38,031 nucleotides of DNA, taken from contig JAFIEO010000057.1 of the NCBI GenBank assembly GCA_020832445.1, positions 1 through 38,031 of the forward strand, in the 5' to 3' direction. The notes under the pieces were generated by a model. The model saw nothing but the letters and a program-made list of their open reading frames with translations, made no database searches and was not told the origin of the DNA. Source of the stretch: Paracoccaceae bacterium. GTDB taxonomy: Bacteria; Pseudomonadota; Alphaproteobacteria; Rhodobacterales; Rhodobacteraceae. A program made the translations under genes and the position numbers. Shown here piece after piece: positions 6,020 to 38,031 of the stretch (positions within the stretch are counted from its first letter, which is position 1; each line of letters starts with the position of its first letter).

Positions 6020-8644
6020 ATGAGTGACAGCGCCCCCACCACCAGCGAACGCGGCATCGCCGCACGGCAGCGGCGGATGACCACCCGCACCAGTGTCAAA
6101 CTGGGCGAGAATATCGCACAAGGGGTCATCACAGTCGGTGGACTGATGGTGATTGTTGCCGTTATGGGGATCATGGTGTTCCTGTTTCGTGTGGTCATGC
6201 CGTTGATGGCCGGTGGCGAATTGCAAGGCAACACCCGCTACCAGCTTGACACCCAGCAAGATGTTATCTGGATCAATGGTGATGAATTCCAGACACTTGG
6301 GATTGCGGTTGCCGCCGAAGGGCGGGTGATTACCTATCACATCCCGTCAGGCACAGAAGTTGCGCGCGACCAGTGGGATTTTCGCGGGGCCGAAGTGACC
6401 GCCGTTGCCGGCACATTGCAGCGTGACCGTGTGGCCTTCGGCTTTGATGACGGGGTTGTGCGTTTTGCCACGCTTGGGGTTCAAACCACGACGACGGCGC
6501 AGCGCGCCCTGCCCGGCGGGCTGATCGATCTTGACGGGCGGGACCGTATGCTTGACGGGCGCGTCTACACCGAAGTCGGCACTGGTGATTTCCGAACGCT
6601 GTTCGGGGAAATCGAACTGGGCGACGGGCAGCAGATCTCTGAACTGCCCATCATCGCGATTGATTACCGCATTGGCGGCACGCGCGAGCGGCCGACCATC
6701 GCGTTTGCCACTGTTGATGCGGACAATCAGGTGCGGGTCAGCCAGTCCCGCGTGCAGATCAACATGATGACCGGTGCGGAAACCGTGTCGACCACCACGA
6801 CCGATCTGCCGCCGCTTGTTGGCCTTGCGGCAGATGCAACGGTTACGGGAATTTTGCTGTCGGGCACGGGCGACCGCGCCATTGTCGCAAGCGATGACGG
6901 GGTCGTCTTCCGCTATGATTTGCGCGATATGAACAACCCTTCGCTGGCTGAAGTGCGGCGCGTTGCCGATGACGGTGTTGCCGTGACGGCCATGACGTTC
7001 CTGTCGGGCGAGGAAACGCTGGTTGTGGGCACCGAAGATGGGGGCTTGAACGCGTTTTTCCGTCTGCAAACCGGCACGACGGATACTACGGACGGGCGCG
7101 AGTTGATGCGCGCACGCACACATGCGCCCATGCCTGCGTCCATCGTCGATCTGTCCGAGGCGCAGCGCCAGAAAGAATTTGTGGCCATCGACGCTGAAGG
7201 CAATGTCTGGGTCTACCATTCAACTTCGGATCAGGTGCTGTTTGAACTGGCGCGTTCGGGCGATGTCAGTACAGACTCCAGCGGGATGATTTTCCCGCGG
7301 TCCAACGGCGTTATGCTGGTGTCGCAAGGCGGCGAGGTCGAGGCATGGCAATACACCCAGCGCCACCCGGAAGTTACGTTTGGCGTGCTGTTCAGCAAAA
7401 TCTGGTATGAAGGCTATATGGAGCCGACCTATGTCTGGCAATCCACTGCCGGAACCGATTTGGCAGAACCCAAATATTCACTGGTGCCGCTGGTTTTCGG
7501 CACGTTCAAGGCGGCGTTTTACGCCATGATCTTTGCCGTGCCGATTGCACTGATGGCCGCGATCTACACATCGGAATTCGTGGACAAACGCGTGCGCGGC
7601 ACCGTCAAGCCGATGATGGAGATGATGGAATCCCTGCCGACCGTGGTTTTGGGGTTCATCGCGGCGCTGGTGCTGGCGCCCTTGGTCGAAGAATGGATCG
7701 GTGCGGTGTTGCTGGGTTTCTTCGCGTTGCCCATGGGGCTGATGATCGGGGCTTTCGCATGGCAGGCATTACCTGCGCAGATTGCCCTTAAATACGACGG
7801 CTTTCCGAAATTCACGCTGATGGGGCTGTCCATTCTGATCACGGCTTGGATTGCCGCCCAGCTTGGCACTTCGCTGGAGCGGGTGCTGTTTTACGGTGAT
7901 TTCAAGCAATGGACGACAGGGCGCATCGGCACTGGCACGCCGTTCATGTTTCTGATCCTGCTGCCGGTCAGCTATTTTGTAACCGCGTGGGCCTTTCGCA
8001 AGCAATTCGGGCACCATTACCGCGACCTGATTTCGGGGTTGGACCGCTCGCGCGCGGGTATGGTGGATGCGGGGCGCTGGATCGTGCTTTTGCTGGTGGC
8101 TATGCTTCTGTCGTTTCTTGTGGCCTATGCGCTGACCCTGATCGGCTATGACCCGCGCGGCAGTTTCATTGACAGCTATCAGCAACGTAATGCGCTGGTG
8201 GTGGGCTTCATCATGGCGTTCGCGGTGATCCCGAACATCTACACACTGGCCGAAGATGCGCTGAATTCCGTTCCCGGCCATTTGCGCGCGGCGTCACTGG
8301 CCTGCGGGGCAACCCCTTGGCAAACCGCGCGCTGGGTCATTTTGCCGACGGCGGCATCGGGTGTGTTTTCGGCGGTGATGATGGGCATGGGCCGTGCTGT
8401 TGGCGAAACCATGATTGTGGTCATGGCCGCAGGCAATACGCCGATCATGGAATGGAACATCTTTTCGGGGTTGCGCACCCTGTCGGCCAATATCGCGATT
8501 GAACTGCCAGAGGCCGTGAAGGATGGCACGAATTACCGTGTGCTGTTCCTTGCTGCGCTGACGCTGTTCATCATGACTTTCGTGATCAACACAGGCGCGG
8601 AGTTGATCCGCCAGCGCTTCCGCAAGCGCGCCTTCAATCTGTAA
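6020..8644 (+). CDS. pstC: Phosphate ABC transporter permease PstC, long form with large periplasmic insert
   Basis: 874-residue permease, against about 320 in E. coli PstC. One membrane segment lies near residues 37-62. A hydrophilic stretch of roughly 420 residues follows, with repeated beta-strand-like blocks (for example GDRAIVASDDGVVFRYDL and EETLVVGTEDGGLNAFF) that suggest a beta-propeller. The usual permease domain begins near residue 488, and its coupling motif reads LRAASLACGATPWQTARWVILP. Long PstC proteins occur in other proteobacteria, so this is a known variant; the propeller call is inference. It would form the channel with PstA and be driven by PstB. ATG 6020 has GATGGA upstream, and pstA begins 21 bases after the stop. 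Confidence 0.9.
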   Translation: MSDSAPTTSERGIAARQRRMTTRTSVKLGENIAQGVITVGGLMVIVAVMGIMVFLFRVVMPLMAGGELQGNTRYQLDTQQDVIWINGDEFQTLGIAVAAEGRVITYHIPSGTEVARDQWDFRGAEVTAVAGTLQRDRVAFGFDDGVVRFATLGVQTTTTAQRALPGGLIDLDGRDRMLDGRVYTEVGTGDFRTLFGEIELGDGQQISELPIIAIDYRIGGTRERPTIAFATVDADNQVRVSQSRVQINMMTGAETVSTTTTDLPPLVGLAADATVTGILLSGTGDRAIVASDDGVVFRYDLRDMNNPSLAEVRRVADDGVAVTAMTFLSGEETLVVGTEDGGLNAFFRLQTGTTDTTDGRELMRARTHAPMPASIVDLSEAQRQKEFVAIDAEGNVWVYHSTSDQVLFELARSGDVSTDSSGMIFPRSNGVMLVSQGGEVEAWQYTQRHPEVTFGVLFSKIWYEGYMEPTYVWQSTAGTDLAEPKYSLVPLVFGTFKAAFYAMIFAVPIALMAAIYTSEFVDKRVRGTVKPMMEMMESLPTVVLGFIAALVLAPLVEEWIGAVLLGFFALPMGLMIGAFAWQALPAQIALKYDGFPKFTLMGLSILITAWIAAQLGTSLERVLFYGDFKQWTTGRIGTGTPFMFLILLPVSYFVTAWAFRKQFGHHYRDLISGLDRSRAGMVDAGRWIVLLLVAMLLSFLVAYALTLIGYDPRGSFIDSYQQRNALVVGFIMAFAVIPNIYTLAEDALNSVPGHLRAASLACGATPWQTARWVILPTAASGVFSAVMMGMGRAVGETMIVVMAAGNTPIMEWNIFSGLRTLSANIAIELPEAVKDGTNYRVLFLAALTLFIMTFVINTGAELIRQRFRKRAFNL

Positions 8645-32799: not shown

Positions 32800-34002
32800 A
32801 TGAAAATTACCGCCATTGAGACCATTCGCATTGCGGAGCGCCCGAACCTGCTATGGGTCGAGGTTCATACCGATGAAGGGATCACAGGTCTGGGCGAGAC
32901 ATTTTTCGGCGCCGCCACTGTTGAGGCGCATGTGCATGAATGGATCGCACCGCGCGTTCTGGGGCGTGACCCGTTGCAGATTGACGCATTGGCCGCCGAT
33001 CTGGTGGGCTATCTGGGGTTCCGGTCGGCGGGGGCGGAAATGCGCGGCAATTCCGCGTTTGACATTGCGCTTTGGGACATATTCGGCAAGGCCACGGGCC
33101 AACCTATCGCGCAGCTCTTGGGCGGGTTCACGCGGCCCTCCATCCGCACCTATAACACCTGCGCGGGGCTGGATTACATCAAGAAGGCTGACGGCCAGCA
33201 GGTGGGTAACTGGGGGCACGGCAACAAGCCCCATGCCTATGACGACCTTGATGCATTCTTGCACCGCGCCGACGATCTGGCCCTGTCCCTGCTGGAGGAC
33301 GGGATCACAGCGATGAAAATCTGGCCTTTTGATATTGCTGCTGAAAAGACGCGCGGTCAGTATATCGCGCCTGAAGATCTGAAAACCGCGCTGCGCCCGT
33401 TTGAAAAAATTCGCGATGCGGTGGGCGATAGAATGGACATTATGGTTGAATTCCATTCCATGTGGCAGCTTTTGCCCGCGATGCAGATTGCCCGCGCGCT
33501 GGCCCCGTTCAATACGTTCTGGCACGAAGATCCCATTCGCATGGACAGCCTTGGCAGCCTGACGCGCTATGCGCAGGCATCTGTCGCGCCGATCTGCGCA
33601 TCTGAAACACTTGCCACGCGCTGGGGGTTTCGGGATTTGCTGGAAACCGGCGCGGCCGGCGTTGTTATGCTGGACCTAAGCTGGTGCGGCGGCCTGTCAG
33701 AGGCGCGCAAGATTGCGGCCATGGCCGAAGCATGGCACCTGCCGGTTGCCCCGCATGATTGCACAGGGCCTGTGGTGCTGGCGGCGTCCACCCATCTGTC
33801 GTTGAACGCCCCCAACGCGCTGGTGCAGGAAAGCGTCCGCGCGTTCTACCGCACATGGTACCGCGATCTGGTCACCGCCCTGCCAGAGGTCAGGAACGGC
33901 CACATAACTGTCCCCCCCGGCCCGGGGTTGGGGCTGGCGTTGAACCCGGAACTGGACAGGGCATTTGAAACCAGCCGCAGGGTTACGCGGGCGGGTATTT
34001 GA
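32800..34002 (+). CDS. Enolase-superfamily (mandelate racemase/muconate lactonizing) acid-sugar dehydratase-like protein
   Basis: 400-residue enzyme. The N-terminal capping domain is followed by a barrel with the three Mg ligands expected of the family: Glu217 (VEFHS), Glu243 (HEDP) and Glu269 (ASETL). Candidate acid/base residues are Lys173 in MKIWPFD and His319 in APHDCTGP. Family members remove a proton next to a carboxylate and then dehydrate or epimerise. Its place behind a GntR regulator and beside hydroxyacid dehydrogenases points to a sugar-acid dehydratase, but the residues do not name a substrate. AAGGTG precedes ATG 32800. It is the last gene before the sequence changes to the accessory island. 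Confidence 0.85.
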   Translation: MKITAIETIRIAERPNLLWVEVHTDEGITGLGETFFGAATVEAHVHEWIAPRVLGRDPLQIDALAADLVGYLGFRSAGAEMRGNSAFDIALWDIFGKATGQPIAQLLGGFTRPSIRTYNTCAGLDYIKKADGQQVGNWGHGNKPHAYDDLDAFLHRADDLALSLLEDGITAMKIWPFDIAAEKTRGQYIAPEDLKTALRPFEKIRDAVGDRMDIMVEFHSMWQLLPAMQIARALAPFNTFWHEDPIRMDSLGSLTRYAQASVAPICASETLATRWGFRDLLETGAAGVVMLDLSWCGGLSEARKIAAMAEAWHLPVAPHDCTGPVVLAASTHLSLNAPNALVQESVRAFYRTWYRDLVTALPEVRNGHITVPPGPGLGLALNPELDRAFETSRRVTRAGI

Positions 34003-34073
34003 TGTCGGATTGCTCGCGCTAGTCAACTACGATGATCGTATTATGTGTGATACGCGGCCAAGTTGATTGACTA

Positions 34074-34636
34074 TCAAAGCTTACTCAAAGCTATTCGAAG
34101 TGCTGCTATCGAAACGCCGAAACGCTTTGAAAGAATTTCCTCGTCAAGTCCATGAAGACTCACCGCAGATGTTAATGCGCCATCTCCAAACACAATAGCT
34201 TCAACAAATTCGTTAGCCTCACGTTCTTGGAACTGTTCATGCGCATCGTAAAAGTGCATCCCCCCCGCGCGATTTAGATCCGGTGCAAATGGGTCTTCGT
34301 TCTTATGCAGCAGGAAGTGCATTATTTCATGCAATACGGTCCATCGCCTGATGGCCACGTCATCGTATCTGTTCACTTCAATGGCAAACCCATTGTCGCT
34401 GAATGGATCAGTAACAAGGCGTCCGCGCTTATTTCTTGGCATTCCAACAAGATATATGTCGAATCCCATTTCAGTTGCGAGTTTTTTTGCGGAAGGGGTG
34501 GTCCCCCCTCCGCCAATTCCAAGATTGAAGTTCCTTATAAGATGGCGCAGATTCCCTTCGGCTGGAAGCCGATTAAAAAGTTCACGTAGGTGTCGGAAGT
34601 CGAAATTTTGTACGAAAAATCAGCCAATTCAGGCAT
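34074..34636 (-). pseudogene. ImmA/IrrE-family metallopeptidase, frameshifted near its start
   Basis: The readable frame from complement 34619 to the stop at 34074 encodes a zinc peptidase with HEIMHFLLH (HExxH) and a following EREANEFVEAI helix that supplies the third ligand, as in ImmA/IrrE. This frame has no ATG, GTG or TTG before residue MGFDIYLV (complement 34469), yet it is clearly coding upstream (RHLRELFNRLPAEGNLRHL). ATG at complement 34636 starts MPELADF in another frame; adding one T to the five-T run (complement 34619-34615) joins it to FVQNFDFRHLREL. Either a one-base deletion, a sequencing error, or slippage explains this. ImmA-type proteases cut repressors in mobile elements, often beside an Xre regulator, which is absent here. 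Confidence 0.75.
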
Positions 34637-34725
34637 TATATGAGTAATATCAATGGCTTAATTTTGAAATTTCAATATGACTTCCCAGAATCTCAAAATA
34701 GGCCCGTTTTCGACAGACAAGAAAG

Positions 34726-34751
34726 AACCCGCGATGAAATCATCGCGGGTT
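34726..34751 (-). terminator. Perfect 12-bp hairpin terminator downstream of the TniB-like gene
   Basis: AACCCGCGATGA (34726-34737) and TCATCGCGGGTT (34740-34751) are perfect reverse complements separated by AA. On the minus strand the stem is followed by CTTTCTTGTC, a weak T tract. It lies 31 bases after the stop of the TniB-like gene. Confidence 0.7.
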
Positions 34752-34782
34752 CATGCAACTTATTGCTGAAATCTGGAGCGGT

Positions 34783-35625
34783 CTATGATTGGAAAAGTTT
34801 ATGCGGGTCGATCCGGTATGGGTTCTCGATCAACATGACATTTGCACTGTCACATGCACCGGTCCATCGGCCGAACGTTTCCGCGAGATCGGTTCTGGAA
34901 AGATCCGTTTTTCCCGCGGCCTTCGCATGGGCCATGGACTGGATCACCATCTCGATGAAGCGCCCCCAACGCCGCGCCGTCCCATGGATCATCCGATTAT
35001 AGGTATCCTCATCCCGGGCACCCGACACGTCCAGTTTCGCGGCCGCGCCGTAAGAGCACATAATCCCGTCGGCCTCTTCGAGGTTTTGTTGGTTGTAGGC
35101 GATATCGCTGTAGGAGATCGGTTCCAGGAGTGCGATCAATTCATCTGATTCATTCAGGTGCTGGAGAAGCGTCGGAATTCCAGACAGGATCAACAAGATC
35201 GGCCATTCCGGGCGCTTCATCAGGTCCTTCAAACCGTCAAGGATGGTCTTGATCTCCTTCGGGGACTTGTCGTGCATGGTATGTTGAGATTCGTCGATAT
35301 GAACGATGAAAATGCCCTTCCGTTTCAACTGATCCTCGGTCCGGCGCCAGATCATGTCCGAGCTGCGATGGTCGAGGTCGCTGAAATAACCCGAAGCCTT
35401 CAACAGGGCTGACCCTAAATGCTTCCATGCGGTCGTCGTCCGCAGGGATATTCGGGCATACTTGCGTTCAAGCCCTCCCGGGAGCGCTGAGGGGTTTTCA
35501 GCGAAGCCTTTCAGGAGATGCTTGATGTCATGGGATTTCCCCGAGCGGGTCCCGGCGGTCAGGACAAGTCCACGCCCTTCGAAGTGGGTGTCTGCGAGGC
35601 GTGAGGATACGAACTGAGCGAGCAC
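34783..35625 (-). CDS. TniB/TnsC-like AAA ATPase of a transposon, probably 5'-truncated
   Basis: 280 residues from GTG at complement 35625. Walker A TAGTRSGKS is at 24-32, Walker B IFIVHIDESQH near 107-117, and sensor-type LILSGIPTLL near 146-155. These features and the ESQH variant match TniB/TnsC ATPases that pick targets for Tn5053/Tn7-like transposition. Family members usually have 30 or more residues ahead of Walker A than seen here. The minus-strand frame runs on without a start codon into sequence that, on the other strand, encodes an EcoRII-type fragment, so the 5' end was probably lost at a recombination joint. No TniA/TnsB transposase or TniQ flanks it, so it is likely a remnant. 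Confidence 0.75.
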   Translation of the reverse strand: MLAQFVSSRLADTHFEGRGLVLTAGTRSGKSHDIKHLLKGFAENPSALPGGLERKYARISLRTTTAWKHLGSALLKASGYFSDLDHRSSDMIWRRTEDQLKRKGIFIVHIDESQHTMHDKSPKEIKTILDGLKDLMKRPEWPILLILSGIPTLLQHLNESDELIALLEPISYSDIAYNQQNLEEADGIMCSYGAAAKLDVSGARDEDTYNRMIHGTARRWGRFIEMVIQSMAHAKAAGKTDLSRTDLAETFGRWTGACDSANVMLIENPYRIDPHKLFQS

Positions 35626-35628
35626 ACT

Positions 35629-35943
35629 GTCGAATCCTGCCTGAAGGCCCGCGCCTATCGTGACCCTGACTTTCCGGAAACCCGGCTTCGGATGCTAGCC
35701 ACAAAGACTACATGCCGCGACCGCTGGCGGCAGGTCATCAACGAGGCGGACCGAATTTCCGTGAAACACCTGCTGACCTTGCAGGAGGGTGTTTCCGAGG
35801 CACAGTTCCGCGAGATGGTGCAGGCCAATGTGCAGCTTGTTGTACCTGAGCCTCTAATTGGCAAGTTTCCACCTGTCATTCGAACTGATATCATGACTCT
35901 TGAGAGCTTTTTGGGGGATTTGAGGGTGTTGCAACAAGCTTAG
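35629..35943 (+). pseudogene. C-terminal fragment of an EcoRII-type restriction endonuclease
   Basis: The frame, open from about 35605 and homologous from about 35632, gives around 104 residues ending at TAG 35941-35943. RLRMLATKTTCRDRWRQV, EADRI, KHLLTLQEGVSEAQFREM, LVVPEPLIGKFP and MTLESFLGDLR match what I recall of the end of the EcoRII catalytic domain. Full enzymes of this type have about 400 residues and cut at CCWGG-like sites. Everything upstream is missing and is replaced by the oppositely oriented TniB-like gene. No cognate cytosine methyltransferase is in the window. It is a dead stub; the ATG at 35692 is not a genuine start. Confidence 0.75.
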
Positions 35944-36134
35944 TGGAGTTTAGGGTCCGCCTGCTGCACGCGGACTGGTTACAAGTGAATTGCACTATTT
36001 TTTGCGATGAAGACGAAGGTTTCCATACTGCATCTGTTAGCCAGTTAAACCAAGCAGAACGGCGCAGGCAAGTCACGGCGGTAGCCTGTCCCCGCAACCA
36101 ACACTGTTTCTTCAATAAAATCAACATCTTCCAA

Positions 36135-36150
36135 CCCCGCACCCGCGGGG
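36135..36150 (+). promoter_or_regulatory. Short GC hairpin directly upstream of the AAA/M41 protease start
   Basis: CCCCGC-ACCC-GCGGGG is a perfect 6-bp stem with a 4-nt loop, ending five bases before ATG 36156. The GGGG of its 3' arm is the only purine-rich stretch near the start codon, so the stem could mask the ribosome site. Confidence 0.4.
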
Positions 36151-36155
36151 CCGTC

Positions 36156-37625
36156 ATGCGTTCCGCTCTTTTTGCCAGCACCCGCAGCCCTTTGTTAGCG
36201 GAGGATCTCAAGACGGCGATCGAACGTCTTGAGCGTGCAGCTTCCCAGAAAACCCAGACGCGGGTCACACTTGATGACGTTCATGGGCAACCCAAAGCGG
36301 TCAAGGCGCTCCGGCGAGTGGTTGAAGATCTGTGGAGTTATCAGTCCGGGGCGGTGAAGTGGTCAGAAGTCACGAAATCCTTCCTGCTTTTGGGTCCACC
36401 AGGCACCGGAAAGAGCATGATGGCGGCGGGGCTGGCGGGGTCAGCGGGCATCAGCTTCGTGAAGACTTCATATTCAGACTGTCAAAAATTCGGGCACCAA
36501 GGCGACATGCTGAAAGCTCTGAACACCGCCGTTGAAAGCGCCATTTCCGCGGCACCCAGTGTCTTTTTCATTGATGAGATTGACTCTTTTCACAGCCGTG
36601 ACCGGGAAACCGGCTCCAGGAATGGCTACATCATCGGAGTGGTGAACGGCTTGCTGACCCAGATTGACCGGCTGTCGGCGACGCCCGGCGTCATTCTGAT
36701 CGCCGAGACCAATGACGCAAAACGCGTCGATAGCGCCGTCATCAGGCCCGGCCGGTTTGACCGGCATATTCATGTCGGAAAGCCGGACCGGTCCGGAATT
36801 CGATCGATGTTCGAAGAGCCGCTTTCCGGACTGACGGTTGATCCGGTCGAGATCGACAGGCTCTGCGATCAGCTATTGGGGTCGTCCGGAGCGGAGATCG
36901 CCGCATTGATCCGGGATGCACGGACGCGTGCCCGCGCAGAACGCAGCCCGCTGTCGTTCGGGCATCTGAAGTCCGCCGCCGACGCGATCCAGCCCCCGTC
37001 GGAGCCCGGCGTCATCTGGCGGATCAGCGTGCATGAAGCCGGACACCTGCTGGCCGGCCATCTTCTGGGACTTCCCGCTGCCGCACATGCCACCGTTACC
37101 GGAATTTATGGACGAGTCACACGTCCTTACCCCACATGCAAACTCCCGGGAACCATCAGCGATATGATTGTTCATGACCTGTCGGGGCGGGTCGCGGAGA
37201 GGCTGGTCTTCGGCGTGATCAGCCACGGCGCCGGTAGCGGCTTGGAAAGCGATCTCGCCCTGGCGACACGTGCCGCCATTGCCGCCGAGACCAGCTATGG
37301 TTTCGGGACATCCCTGAGCTGGATCGACCCGGAAACGCCGCTCTATCTGCTACCACGCGACATTCAGTCAAGGGTCGAGGCCCGGCTGGCCGCCGCCGAA
37401 GCCCGCACACAGAGGCTTCTGGCGGAGCGGAAACCTGAAATTGAGCGGATCGCCCGGGTTCTGATTGAGAAGCGGGACCTGGATGCAGCGGCGATTTCTG
37501 CGCTGTTGTCTGGCGTCCCCAATGGAACAGTCCACACCATGAGCCCCGCGGAATGTGAGGGCCGCGAAACCCAGCATGTTGATCCCAGTTTCTTGAAGGA
37601 AACCCCCGATGCACAATCACTTTAA
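36156..37625 (+). CDS. FtsH-like AAA+ ATPase/M41 zinc protease without membrane anchor
   Basis: 489 residues. The AAA module has Walker A GPPGTGKS (80-87), Walker B VFFIDEID (136-143), sensor-1 Asn in AETND (184-188) and arginine fingers in RPGRFDR (197-203). The peptidase part has HEAGH (293-297), GRVAERLVFG (344-353) and Asp366 in GLESDLALAT as third zinc ligand. All catalytic elements of FtsH are therefore present, but there is no N-terminal membrane segment, so the protein should be soluble. ATG 36156 is chosen because the frame before it, open back to GTG 35943, looks non-coding and overlaps the EcoRII stub. The next gene starts inside its last codons (37609). Function is unknown; a regulated or defence-related protease is a guess. 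Confidence 0.8.
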   Translation: MRSALFASTRSPLLAEDLKTAIERLERAASQKTQTRVTLDDVHGQPKAVKALRRVVEDLWSYQSGAVKWSEVTKSFLLLGPPGTGKSMMAAGLAGSAGISFVKTSYSDCQKFGHQGDMLKALNTAVESAISAAPSVFFIDEIDSFHSRDRETGSRNGYIIGVVNGLLTQIDRLSATPGVILIAETNDAKRVDSAVIRPGRFDRHIHVGKPDRSGIRSMFEEPLSGLTVDPVEIDRLCDQLLGSSGAEIAALIRDARTRARAERSPLSFGHLKSAADAIQPPSEPGVIWRISVHEAGHLLAGHLLGLPAAAHATVTGIYGRVTRPYPTCKLPGTISDMIVHDLSGRVAERLVFGVISHGAGSGLESDLALATRAAIAAETSYGFGTSLSWIDPETPLYLLPRDIQSRVEARLAAAEARTQRLLAERKPEIERIARVLIEKRDLDAAAISALLSGVPNGTVHTMSPAECEGRETQHVDPSFLKETPDAQSL

Positions 37626-37895
37626 TCCTCACCATCCGATGCGGCATCTGATCTCAACGGTCGCTGAAAGTTTGCTGCGTGATGATCCGGAATATGAAGA
37701 GAGCCCTGCGACTTTGCCGCCGGTAATTCGTCGGATGTACCAGGAATTCCTCCGGTTCCCGGAGCATGGCTCAACGGCGCCACGTCTGGTCGACTTTCTG
37801 CATTATATCAAGAGATTGGATGCGATCTCTCCAAGTGACAGTGATCTGGATGAGGCCCCGGAACTCGGCCGTTGGGCGCTGGTGCGCCGCCCCGC
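37609..37895 (+). pseudogene. Unrecognised partner gene of the AAA/M41 protease, cut by an IS21-family element
   Basis: ATG 37609 overlaps the last 17 bases of the protease gene, so translation is probably coupled. About 96 native residues are readable: His-rich start MHNHFNPHHPMRHLISTVAESLL, an acidic stretch DDPEYEES, then PPVIRRMYQEFLRFPEHGS and LVDFLHYIKRLDAISPSDSDLDEAPELGRWALVRR. I do not recognise the family. No membrane segment or known motif is visible. From 37896 the sequence is the end of an insertion sequence; the frame continues 22 codons into it to a stop at 37960-37962, giving a chimeric tail. The original 3' end lies beyond the window, if it survives. Confidence 0.6.
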
Positions 37896-38031
37896 TGTAA
37901 ATGCTGGATTAAAATTCCCCAGAAGTGCTGGCGCAAAATTCCCCACCTCACGGGTTTGGTGATCAGCCGTTGAGTTGATCAGCGCCTCCGTTCTTGGGTG
38001 GCCTGCCTCGGCGTTTTGGCGGCGGTGGGGG
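37896..38031. mobile_element. One end of an IS21-family insertion sequence (runs off the window)
   Basis: The element begins TGTAAATGCTGG at 37896. Two imperfect subterminal repeats follow at a 24-base interval, ATGCTGG-N3-AAAATTCCCCA (37901-37921) and GTGCTGG-N3-AAAATTCCCCA (37925-37945). TGT ends with multiple internal repeats are typical of IS21. The 3' end of a minus-strand istB-like gene lies just inside. The target duplication cannot be checked because the other end is outside. Confidence 0.75.
37963..38031 (-). CDS. istB: IstB-like IS21 helper ATPase, C-terminal end (rest outside the window)
   Basis: The minus-strand frame from the window edge to TGA (complement 37965-37963) gives 22 residues: five prolines, then KRRGRPPKNGGADQLNG. 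Basic, proline-rich tails with RRGRPPKNG are common at the end of IstB proteins, the AAA ATPase that works with the IstA transposase. The short length limits certainty, but the adjacent IS21-like terminus supports the call. Confidence 0.65.
   Translation of the reverse strand, partial: PPPPPKRRGRPPKNGGADQLNG

What the first reader, a model, noticed from the sequence alone, without database searches (positions are those of the whole stretch)
36156..37895. Soluble FtsH-like AAA+/M41 protease coupled to an unknown small protein in a mobile-element graveyard
The AAA and HEAGH zinc-protease motifs are intact, including Asp366 as third ligand, yet the membrane segments that define FtsH are missing. 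The following gene overlaps it by 17 bases, implying a two-gene unit, and belongs to no family I recognise. Neighbours are a restriction-enzyme stub, a TniB-like remnant, an ImmA-like gene and an IS21 end, which is the setting of defence or plasmid-maintenance modules. A two-component soluble protease system acting in defence or stress is inference.
Basis: partly seen in the sequence, partly recalled or inferred. Interest (0 to 1): 0.75.

Follow-up and report, generated by a model that had tools for sequence, protein, structure and literature searches.

The report
Broken copy of a nuclease-partnered protease
The window holds a broken copy of a soluble cousin of the bacterial protease FtsH; intact relatives usually sit beside a DNA- or phosphodiester-cutting enzyme or a small uncharacterised partner, often on mobile elements or near defence genes, which makes it a candidate for an undescribed bacterial defence system.

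Summary
The motifs, the 17-base overlap and the debris setting are real, but neither gene is whole. A same-genus genome (G676) is 90% identical to window 36198-37895 exactly. Left of 36198 lies the opposite-strand tail of a large serine recombinase (LSR) gene; right of 37895 lies an IS21 end. The "489-residue protein" is a 5'-truncated AAA+/M41 gene, and the partner is the first 96 residues of a 169-residue DUF6634 protein. Full-length relatives (658-795 residues) add an N-terminal domain, probably a degenerate AAA+, and show no transmembrane segment. They group apart from FtsH. Of 66 loci, 35 have a GIY-YIG-like or PD-(D/E)XK nuclease gene upstream, 16 have DUF6634 and/or a calcineurin-like phosphoesterase nearby, 0 both, 15 neither; 20 control regions have none. 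Fifteen of 66 have an LSR downstream. Defence genes lie near several loci (Mza, Druantia, Lamassu, CBASS, type I RM). Best reading: soluble ATP-dependent protease plus interchangeable phosphodiesterase, probably defence or inter-element conflict. Function is inferred. Ten paper searches (listings only) found no description.

The parts
36198..37625 (+). 5'-truncated gene for a soluble AAA+/M41 protease (N-terminal domain lost; AAA and M41 domains present; catalytic residues intact)
   Evidence: PF00004 and PF01434; homology to ~700-aa relatives starts near their residue 250; 90% DNA identity to G676 from exactly 36198
36156..36197 (+). 14 codons read as the start of the 489-residue ORF but lying over the antisense recombinase tail; not part of the protease gene
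   Evidence: G676 identity starts at 36198; 36049-36197 matches LSR 3' ends or parts of them in same-genus genomes
36045..36194 (-). last 49 codons and stop of a large serine recombinase gene (5'-truncated)
   Evidence: C-terminus like the LSR tail in L243 (by eye) and cl4 LSRs (39.6% over 48 residues to L041_6, E 2e-5); L243 carries an intact tRNA-Met(cat) beside it
37609..37895 (+). 5' part of a DUF6634 gene (96 of 169 residues), overlapping the protease gene by 17 bases
   Evidence: G676 orthologue 169 aa, 81% identical over 96 residues, DUF6634 PF20339 1.3e-6
37896..38031 (.). IS21-family element end that cuts the DUF6634 gene; the contig ends here
   Evidence: 80-84% to Paracoccus and Leisingera plasmid sequences, mostly annotated istB; G676 identity ends at 37895
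35692..35943 (+). C-terminal stub of an EcoRII-type restriction endonuclease
   Evidence: PF09019 EcoRII-C positions 92-165, 6.7e-30
34783..35625 (-).
   Evidence: PF13401 2.5e-6; the TniB label itself was not tested
34074..34469 (-). ImmA/IrrE-type M78 peptidase ORF
   Evidence: PF06114 1.1e-11

Best explanation
The locus is a relic of a mobile, two-component conflict module. Shown by sequence: a soluble, FtsH-related AAA+/M41 protease family whose full-length members carry a folded N-terminal domain. Their genes usually sit near one of several unrelated partners: a zinc-ribbon GIY-YIG-like nuclease, a PD-(D/E)XK nuclease, or DUF6634 and/or a calcineurin-like phosphoesterase. Probable: the N-terminal domain is a degenerate AAA+ domain without nucleotide-binding motifs. 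Inferred mechanism: the protein forms a cytosolic hexamer; the N-terminal ring recognises a trigger or substrate, the active AAA ring unfolds it and the M41 ring degrades it, and this controls (releases or restrains) the neighbouring nuclease, which attacks invading DNA or disables the host. The interchangeable effector beside a constant ATPase-protease and the recurrent defence neighbours suggest anti-phage or anti-plasmid defence, or competition between mobile elements. In the window both genes are broken, so this copy most likely no longer works as a unit.
For: Partner conservation: nuclease upstream within 500 bases in 30 of 38 loci with usable flank (3 of 41 dropped for lack of flank). 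In 66 loci (47 used while developing, 19 fetched afterwards from 13 genomes) 35 have a nuclease, 16 DUF6634 and/or phosphoesterase in the stretch (up to about 5 kb away), 0 both, 15 neither; in the later 19 alone 4, 7, 0 and 8; 20 random regions of the same genomes: none. Nuclease type needs at least 5 changes on the protease tree. Residues recalled as catalytic are invariant in the three partner alignments, 13, 9 and 7 rows. Protease motifs invariant; the model matches FtsH cytosolic part 2ce7; the 50 listed N-domain matches are AAA+ proteins as far as their titles show. Defence neighbours: 12 of 20 hand-picked neighbours matched PADLOC, among them MzaC/D/E, DruE3, LmuA and LmuB, type IV REase, NsnB-like, PD-T7-1, SoFic; later type I REase, CBASS SAVED-HNH and cyclase, MTase; CRISPR repeats after the L055 LSR. 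PADLOC models matched at 1e-20: 59 by 121 neighbours, 8 by 120 control proteins.
Against: No function was tested. Mobile elements collect defence genes anyway, so neighbours may be hitchhikers. The 59-against-8 contrast counts models, not proteins: one Cas1 or DruE protein hits many models, only 25 of the 59 were shown, and matches are not assigned to members. I can place the foreground's best matches in five of 20 loci (L048, L053, L055, L056, L058); the control's could fall on about 3 to 9 proteins, two of them GlgB. Eight of the 20 hand-picked neighbours matched nothing. 15 of 66 loci have no recognised partner. The partner profiles were built from some of the 47 development loci, which match by construction, and partner type follows relatedness to some degree, so '0 both' is not 66 independent events. 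No specific PADLOC model matched the protease or the two nucleases tested. The GIY-YIG call is weak by Pfam (best E 0.014; nothing below 0.08 in solved structures, none of those a nuclease) and leans on PGAP names. hhalign finds no significant similarity between the N-domain and the active AAA domain, and Foldseek E-values for it are weak (best 2e-3).
Confidence: 0.45

Rival explanations
1. Element-maintenance module: protease and nuclease serve the mobile element itself (control of recombinase, relaxase or repressor; processing during mobilisation or replication) rather than defence.
For: Recurrent order RHH gene (opposite strand) - ~170-aa protein (one weak MobD-like match, 1e-3) - nuclease - protease - large serine recombinase; relaxase-like genes (weak Mob_Pre or Relaxase matches) in the two loci tested, related genes in others; LSR downstream in 15 of 66 loci, running into initiator tRNA in 8 loci.
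Against: 51 of 66 loci show no LSR downstream in the stretch held (some stretches end early); the nuclease fold and partner type vary while the protease stays; none of the 16 DUF6634/phosphoesterase loci shows the RHH or the ~170-aa gene.
Confidence: 0.27
2. General protein quality-control or stress protease carried as cargo; adjacency to nucleases reflects shared mobility.
For: FtsH-like protease core; plasmid location of many copies.
Against: Close, ordered partner genes of two kinds not seen together, and short or overlapping gene junctions.
Confidence: 0.17
3. The window ORF is a plain FtsH fragment that lost its membrane N-terminus.
For: AAA and M41 domains; TIGR01241 match of 160.6 bits.
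Against: Intact orthologue in G676 has a different, soluble N-terminal part of about 240 residues; family and FtsH lie on opposite sides of supported branches (SH-aLRT 95 and 100); score far under the FtsH cut-off of 600, though the query is truncated.
Confidence: 0.01
4. The truncated pair in the window is still a working short two-gene system.
For: No stop codons, catalytic residues kept, dN/dS 0.33 against G676. A few other short copies exist: L104 (489-residue call) and L278 (match of about 425 residues).
Against: First third of the protease and the DUF6634 C-terminus are gone; in the alignment of 28 relatives only L001, at a contig start, lacks most of the N-domain; the divergence includes the time before truncation.
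Confidence: 0.04

Closest known systems
FtsH / m-AAA and i-AAA proteases (AAA+ with M41)
   Same: AAA and M41 domains, Walker motifs, HEXGH, third Asp ligand; model matches FtsH cytosolic structures
   Different: No clear membrane segments; extra N-terminal domain, probably AAA-like; separate group in the tree; coupled to nuclease or phosphoesterase genes; patchy (16 of 398 phylum-level genomes, own genome included, all of the same class)
IetAS defence system
   Same: AAA ATPase linked to proteolysis; PADLOC IetA model matches the AAA domain (2.6e-24)
   Different: Match covers only residues 50-259; protease is M41 fused to the ATPase, not a separate subtilisin (the latter recalled)
Effector-swapping defence systems such as CBASS and Lamassu
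   Same: Constant ATPase or sensor with interchangeable effectors, in defence islands (principle recalled)
   Different: Core is an ATP-dependent metalloprotease; no cyclase or SMC-type ATPase belongs to the unit
Integrative and mobilisable elements with serine recombinases
   Same: LSR, relaxase-like gene in some loci, RHH gene, recurrent insertion site
   Different: Site is the initiator tRNA gene, with the LSR 3' end overlapping the tRNA; no description seen in the listings of searches

Membership tests
FtsH (TIGR01241) | AAA domain with Walker A/B, sensor and arginine-finger residues | tested here: met
   Invariant or nearly invariant columns in 29 sequences; roles of residues recalled
FtsH (TIGR01241) | M41 HEXGH and third Asp ligand | tested here: met
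   HEAGH 293, Asp366; invariant in the alignment
FtsH (TIGR01241) | N-terminal membrane segments | tested here: not met
   Top hydropathy 1.10-1.81 in 28 relatives, 1.27 in window; four FtsH 1.79-2.49, so the ranges touch; soluble fold in the model of L055
FtsH (TIGR01241) | Curated score cut-off of 600 bits and place among FtsH in a tree | tested here: not met
   160.6 bits (truncated window copy); separate group in a quick tree
DUF6634 (PF20339) | Passes Pfam gathering score | tested here: met
   Intact G676 orthologue 28.7 bits against 27; the window stub alone matches nothing
IetAS | Full-length IetA match | tested here: not met
   Partial IetA match, AAA domain only
IetAS | Partner subtilisin protease gene | not tested
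   No search for S8 genes was made across the window; one is annotated near relative L248
Known anti-phage system (PADLOC) | Protease and partner match a described system | tested here: not met
   Protease: AAA-domain matches to IetA and TRIP13 and weaker ones; no match for one PD-(D/E)XK and one GIY-YIG-like protein, PDC-S10 4.5e-7 for the phosphoesterase
Anti-phage function | Protection against phage or plasmid | not testable with these tools
   Needs bench work
Integrative and mobilisable element | Site-specific recombinase, relaxase and both attachment sites | tested here: inconclusive
   LSR in 15 of 66 loci, relaxase-like genes in some, one attachment junction seen in 8 loci; the second junction was not mapped

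The most novel reading that the evidence does not exclude
An undescribed alphaproteobacterial defence or inter-element conflict system: a soluble tandem-AAA (one domain degenerate) FtsH-related protease that controls one of several interchangeable phosphodiester-cutting effectors (GIY-YIG-like, PD-(D/E)XK, calcineurin-like with DUF6634), spread in part by large-serine-recombinase elements that insert into initiator tRNA genes.
Probability: 0.4. Interest if true: 0.8.

Novelty: new variant of a known kind. Interest (0 to 1): 0.6.

Why it matters
A defence or conflict system built round an ATP-dependent zinc metalloprotease related to FtsH would be unusual: FtsH is known as a housekeeping membrane protease, and coupling a soluble relative to swappable nucleases would show proteolysis used as the control step for nucleic-acid attack. 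It would also give DUF6634, for which the paper library held no mention, a testable role.

Tried and rejected
Rejected: plain FtsH fragment (G676 and tree). Rejected: a family-less partner (DUF6634 once intact). Rejected: IetAS membership. Phage origin: 153 viral stretches encode a relative and 80 were kept; the best match at 29-32% over the AAA-M41 part, and only three weak ones begin before residue 220 of the query, in the N-domain, so not pursued. The 96-residue stub as a query found one weak match among 149 genomes besides its own (a 221-residue protein; no protease among the genes called in the 15 kb around it), nothing clear in 37 loci (best E 0.05), and in plasmids only IS sequence. hhalign of N-domain against the active AAA domain: not significant. 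Searching the own genome for the tRNA-fMet 3' half gave nothing; of 8 other genomes 6 had matches, but I did not map element ends. Papers: ten searches, listings only; no paper was opened. None described the module in what the listings show, but subscription papers and preprints are mostly not held. My gene caller is home-made and missed some genes (for example the GIY-YIG gene in L038), so partner counts use tblastn and six-frame profile searches. For the PADLOC control I scanned 120 of 193 called control proteins (first six per region) and, as foreground, 20 of the 29 genome loci.

Full report
What is in the window. The second ORF starts at 37609, 17 bases inside the first. A same-genus genome, G676, is 90% identical without gaps to window 36198-37895; in a comparison of window 34000-38031 with the 19.5-kb G676 stretch this was the only match. 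To the left, window 36045-36194 on the minus strand encodes the last 49 residues of a large serine recombinase (LSR), like the LSR tail beside tRNA-Met(cat) in L243. To the right, an IS21 end begins. So the 489-residue ORF is the last two thirds of a gene, with 14 chance codons in front.

The intact relative. In G676 the protease frame is open from 7617, with a first ATG at 7635 and another at 7680, to 9803 in L241, so about 700-720 residues, with an N-terminal part of about 240 residues that the window lacks. The partner is 169 residues with the same 17-base overlap, followed by a calcineurin-like phosphoesterase. The partner passes the DUF6634 cut-off, with the match at residues 73-143, most of it beyond the point where IS21 cuts the window copy. 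The gene upstream of the protease in G676 (229 aa) matches no Pfam family; a type I restriction enzyme gene ends about 4.5 kb upstream of the protease. Between window and G676 the protease part has dN/dS 0.33 and no stops, so I infer that decay is recent.

The protease family. Single-sequence search of 295 same-family genomes gave matches in 57 at 1e-40; by score, 24 of the 295 (my cut, over 165 bits, own genome included) carry this family and the rest look like ordinary FtsH. With a profile, 385 class-level genomes gave matches in 362 at 1e-60; in the part of the list shown, ordinary FtsH scores about 289-316 bits, and 11 genomes besides the window's own have a match above 380 bits, several of them the longer relatives below. 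At 1e-98, 16 of 398 phylum-level genomes matched, own genome included, all of the same class. In a quick tree of 55 rows the module family (38 rows), FtsH (12) and a set of about 910-residue relatives (5) each fall on one side of a branch, and the window copy lies among the module rows next to L001, L038 and L041. The root is unknown, support is SH-aLRT only, and the places of L043, L107, L059 and L056 are unsure.

Structure. AlphaFold2 on L055 with 23 sequences gave mean pLDDT 85. The AAA-M41 part matches FtsH cytosolic structures (best TM-score by target 0.83 in the list). The N-domain of L058 alone gave pLDDT 84; its 50 listed Foldseek matches (of 1202 at E up to 10) are AAA+ proteins as far as titles show (NSF, Msp1, Drg1, Pex1/6, RFC and others), but with weak E-values, 2e-3 at best, and hhalign against the family's own AAA domain was not significant. 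I therefore call it a probable degenerate AAA+ domain.

Partners. Of 41 loci, three had no usable upstream flank; 30 of the other 38 have a nuclease gene just upstream on the same strand: 20 GIY-YIG-like, 10 PD-(D/E)XK. Profile scans of 47 loci used in development and 19 loci (13 genomes) fetched later gave: GIY-YIG-like 22 and 4, PD-(D/E)XK 9 and 0, DUF6634 and/or phosphoesterase 9 and 7, none of these 7 and 8; none of the 66 has both kinds; 20 random regions from the same genomes had none of these (one weak LSR match). All 35 nucleases lie within 500 bases upstream of the protease match; DUF6634 or phosphoesterase genes lie up to about 5 kb away, on either side. Some of the 47 were picked because they looked informative, and several supplied the profiles, so the 19 are the fair test: 11 of 19 have a recognised partner. 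In plasmid records, at least 12 of 58 with the protease have a phosphoesterase within 4 kb on the same strand, counted by me from positions (whose lists were cut at 40 of 59 and 60 of 85 records) and from annotation; three of these are near-identical Rhizobium leguminosarum plasmids. PD-(D/E)XK rests on PF11645 (1.2e-6 in L103; weaker in L044 and L049, none in L063) and a match to the solved putative endonuclease 2ost (3.9e-4). GIY-YIG rests on PGAP names in three loci, conserved residues and only weak Pfam matches. Nuclease type needs at least 5 changes on the protease tree, so partners seem to be exchanged.

Mobility. Fifteen of 66 loci have an LSR, some only in part, downstream on the same strand. 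In 8 loci (L041, L045, L047, L060, L065, L067, L071, L103) the LSR 3' end runs into the two halves of an initiator tRNA gene in antisense; ARAGORN confirmed tRNA-Met(cat) in the three of these that I gave it, and in three (L041, L060, L103) I read 5S rRNA sequence beyond it (recalled, not searched in Rfam). L048 and L106 have only the 3' half; L055 and L063 end otherwise. Relaxase-like genes in some loci, an RHH gene on the opposite strand and a ~170-residue protein with a weak MobD-like match complete the usual order. The window's own LSR tail is of this type but has a different last stretch, so it is not joined to that tRNA gene here; ARAGORN finds no tRNA in the window.

Defence setting. 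Of 20 hand-picked neighbours 12 matched PADLOC at 1e-3: MzaC/D/E (L058), DruE3 (L053), LmuA and LmuB (L046), a type IV enzyme (L056), an NsnB-like ATPase (L064), PD-T7-1 and a DpdF-like protein (L048), SoFic (L038) and a weak caspase match (L052); eight matched nothing. Later also type I REase (L241), CBASS effector and cyclase (L250) and an MTase (L246). CRISPR-like repeats follow the L055 LSR, and SIR2 and TIR proteins are annotated beside L041 and L248. As a less selected test, 121 neighbours from 20 loci matched 59 models at 1e-20 (25 shown) against 8 models for 120 proteins from 20 random regions. This counts models, several of which fall on one protein; by locus the contrast is at least five of 20 against an unknown number from about 3 to 9 proteins. 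It is suggestive and does not prove enrichment.

Reading. The most economical explanation is a two-part conflict module in which a constant soluble ATP-dependent protease is paired with interchangeable phosphodiesterases. Steps shown: architecture, lack of clear membrane segments, recurrent partners of two kinds not seen together, mobile and partly defence-rich surroundings, truncation of the window copy. Steps inferred: hexamer formation, ATP-dependent proteolysis, control of the nuclease, and protection against phages or plasmids. A role in the element's own upkeep is the main rival.

Literature. Ten paper searches returned listings only, none showing this module; no paper was opened. That is absence in the listings of an open-access library, not proof of novelty.

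Noticed in passing
L041, L045, L047, L060, L065, L067, L071, L103 (ends of LSR genes): Large serine recombinase genes end in antisense overlap with an initiator tRNA gene, giving proteins a C-terminus like VAGxGFEPxxFRL; integration seems to restore the tRNA.
   Followed up: partly
L055, after the LSR: A CRISPR-like array with a 32-base repeat starts about 50 bases after the recombinase gene; Cas1c, Cas4c and Cas7c matches in the neighbour scan probably come from this locus.
   Followed up: partly
L108, L110, L111, L112, L114: About 900-residue relatives of the protease, apparently single genes, several with similar chromosomal neighbourhoods; a separate group from both the module family and FtsH.
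   Followed up: partly
G000:C10:2011-4963 (L044) and G000:C69:55520-55996 (L007/L116): The window's own genome carries an uninterrupted PD-(D/E)XK plus protease pair on C10 and a second protease remnant with one stop on C69.
   Followed up: partly
L106:8830-9543 and L104:9526-10218: Similar-looking 230-237-residue proteins near the protease; the L106 one matches no Pfam family above cut-off; possibly a further partner type.
   Followed up: no
window 36045-36090: The LSR tail ends in GYRRDLPAPFCLV instead of the tRNA-coded tail, and near-identical endings recur at L240, L242 and L244; perhaps a second attachment junction.
   Followed up: no
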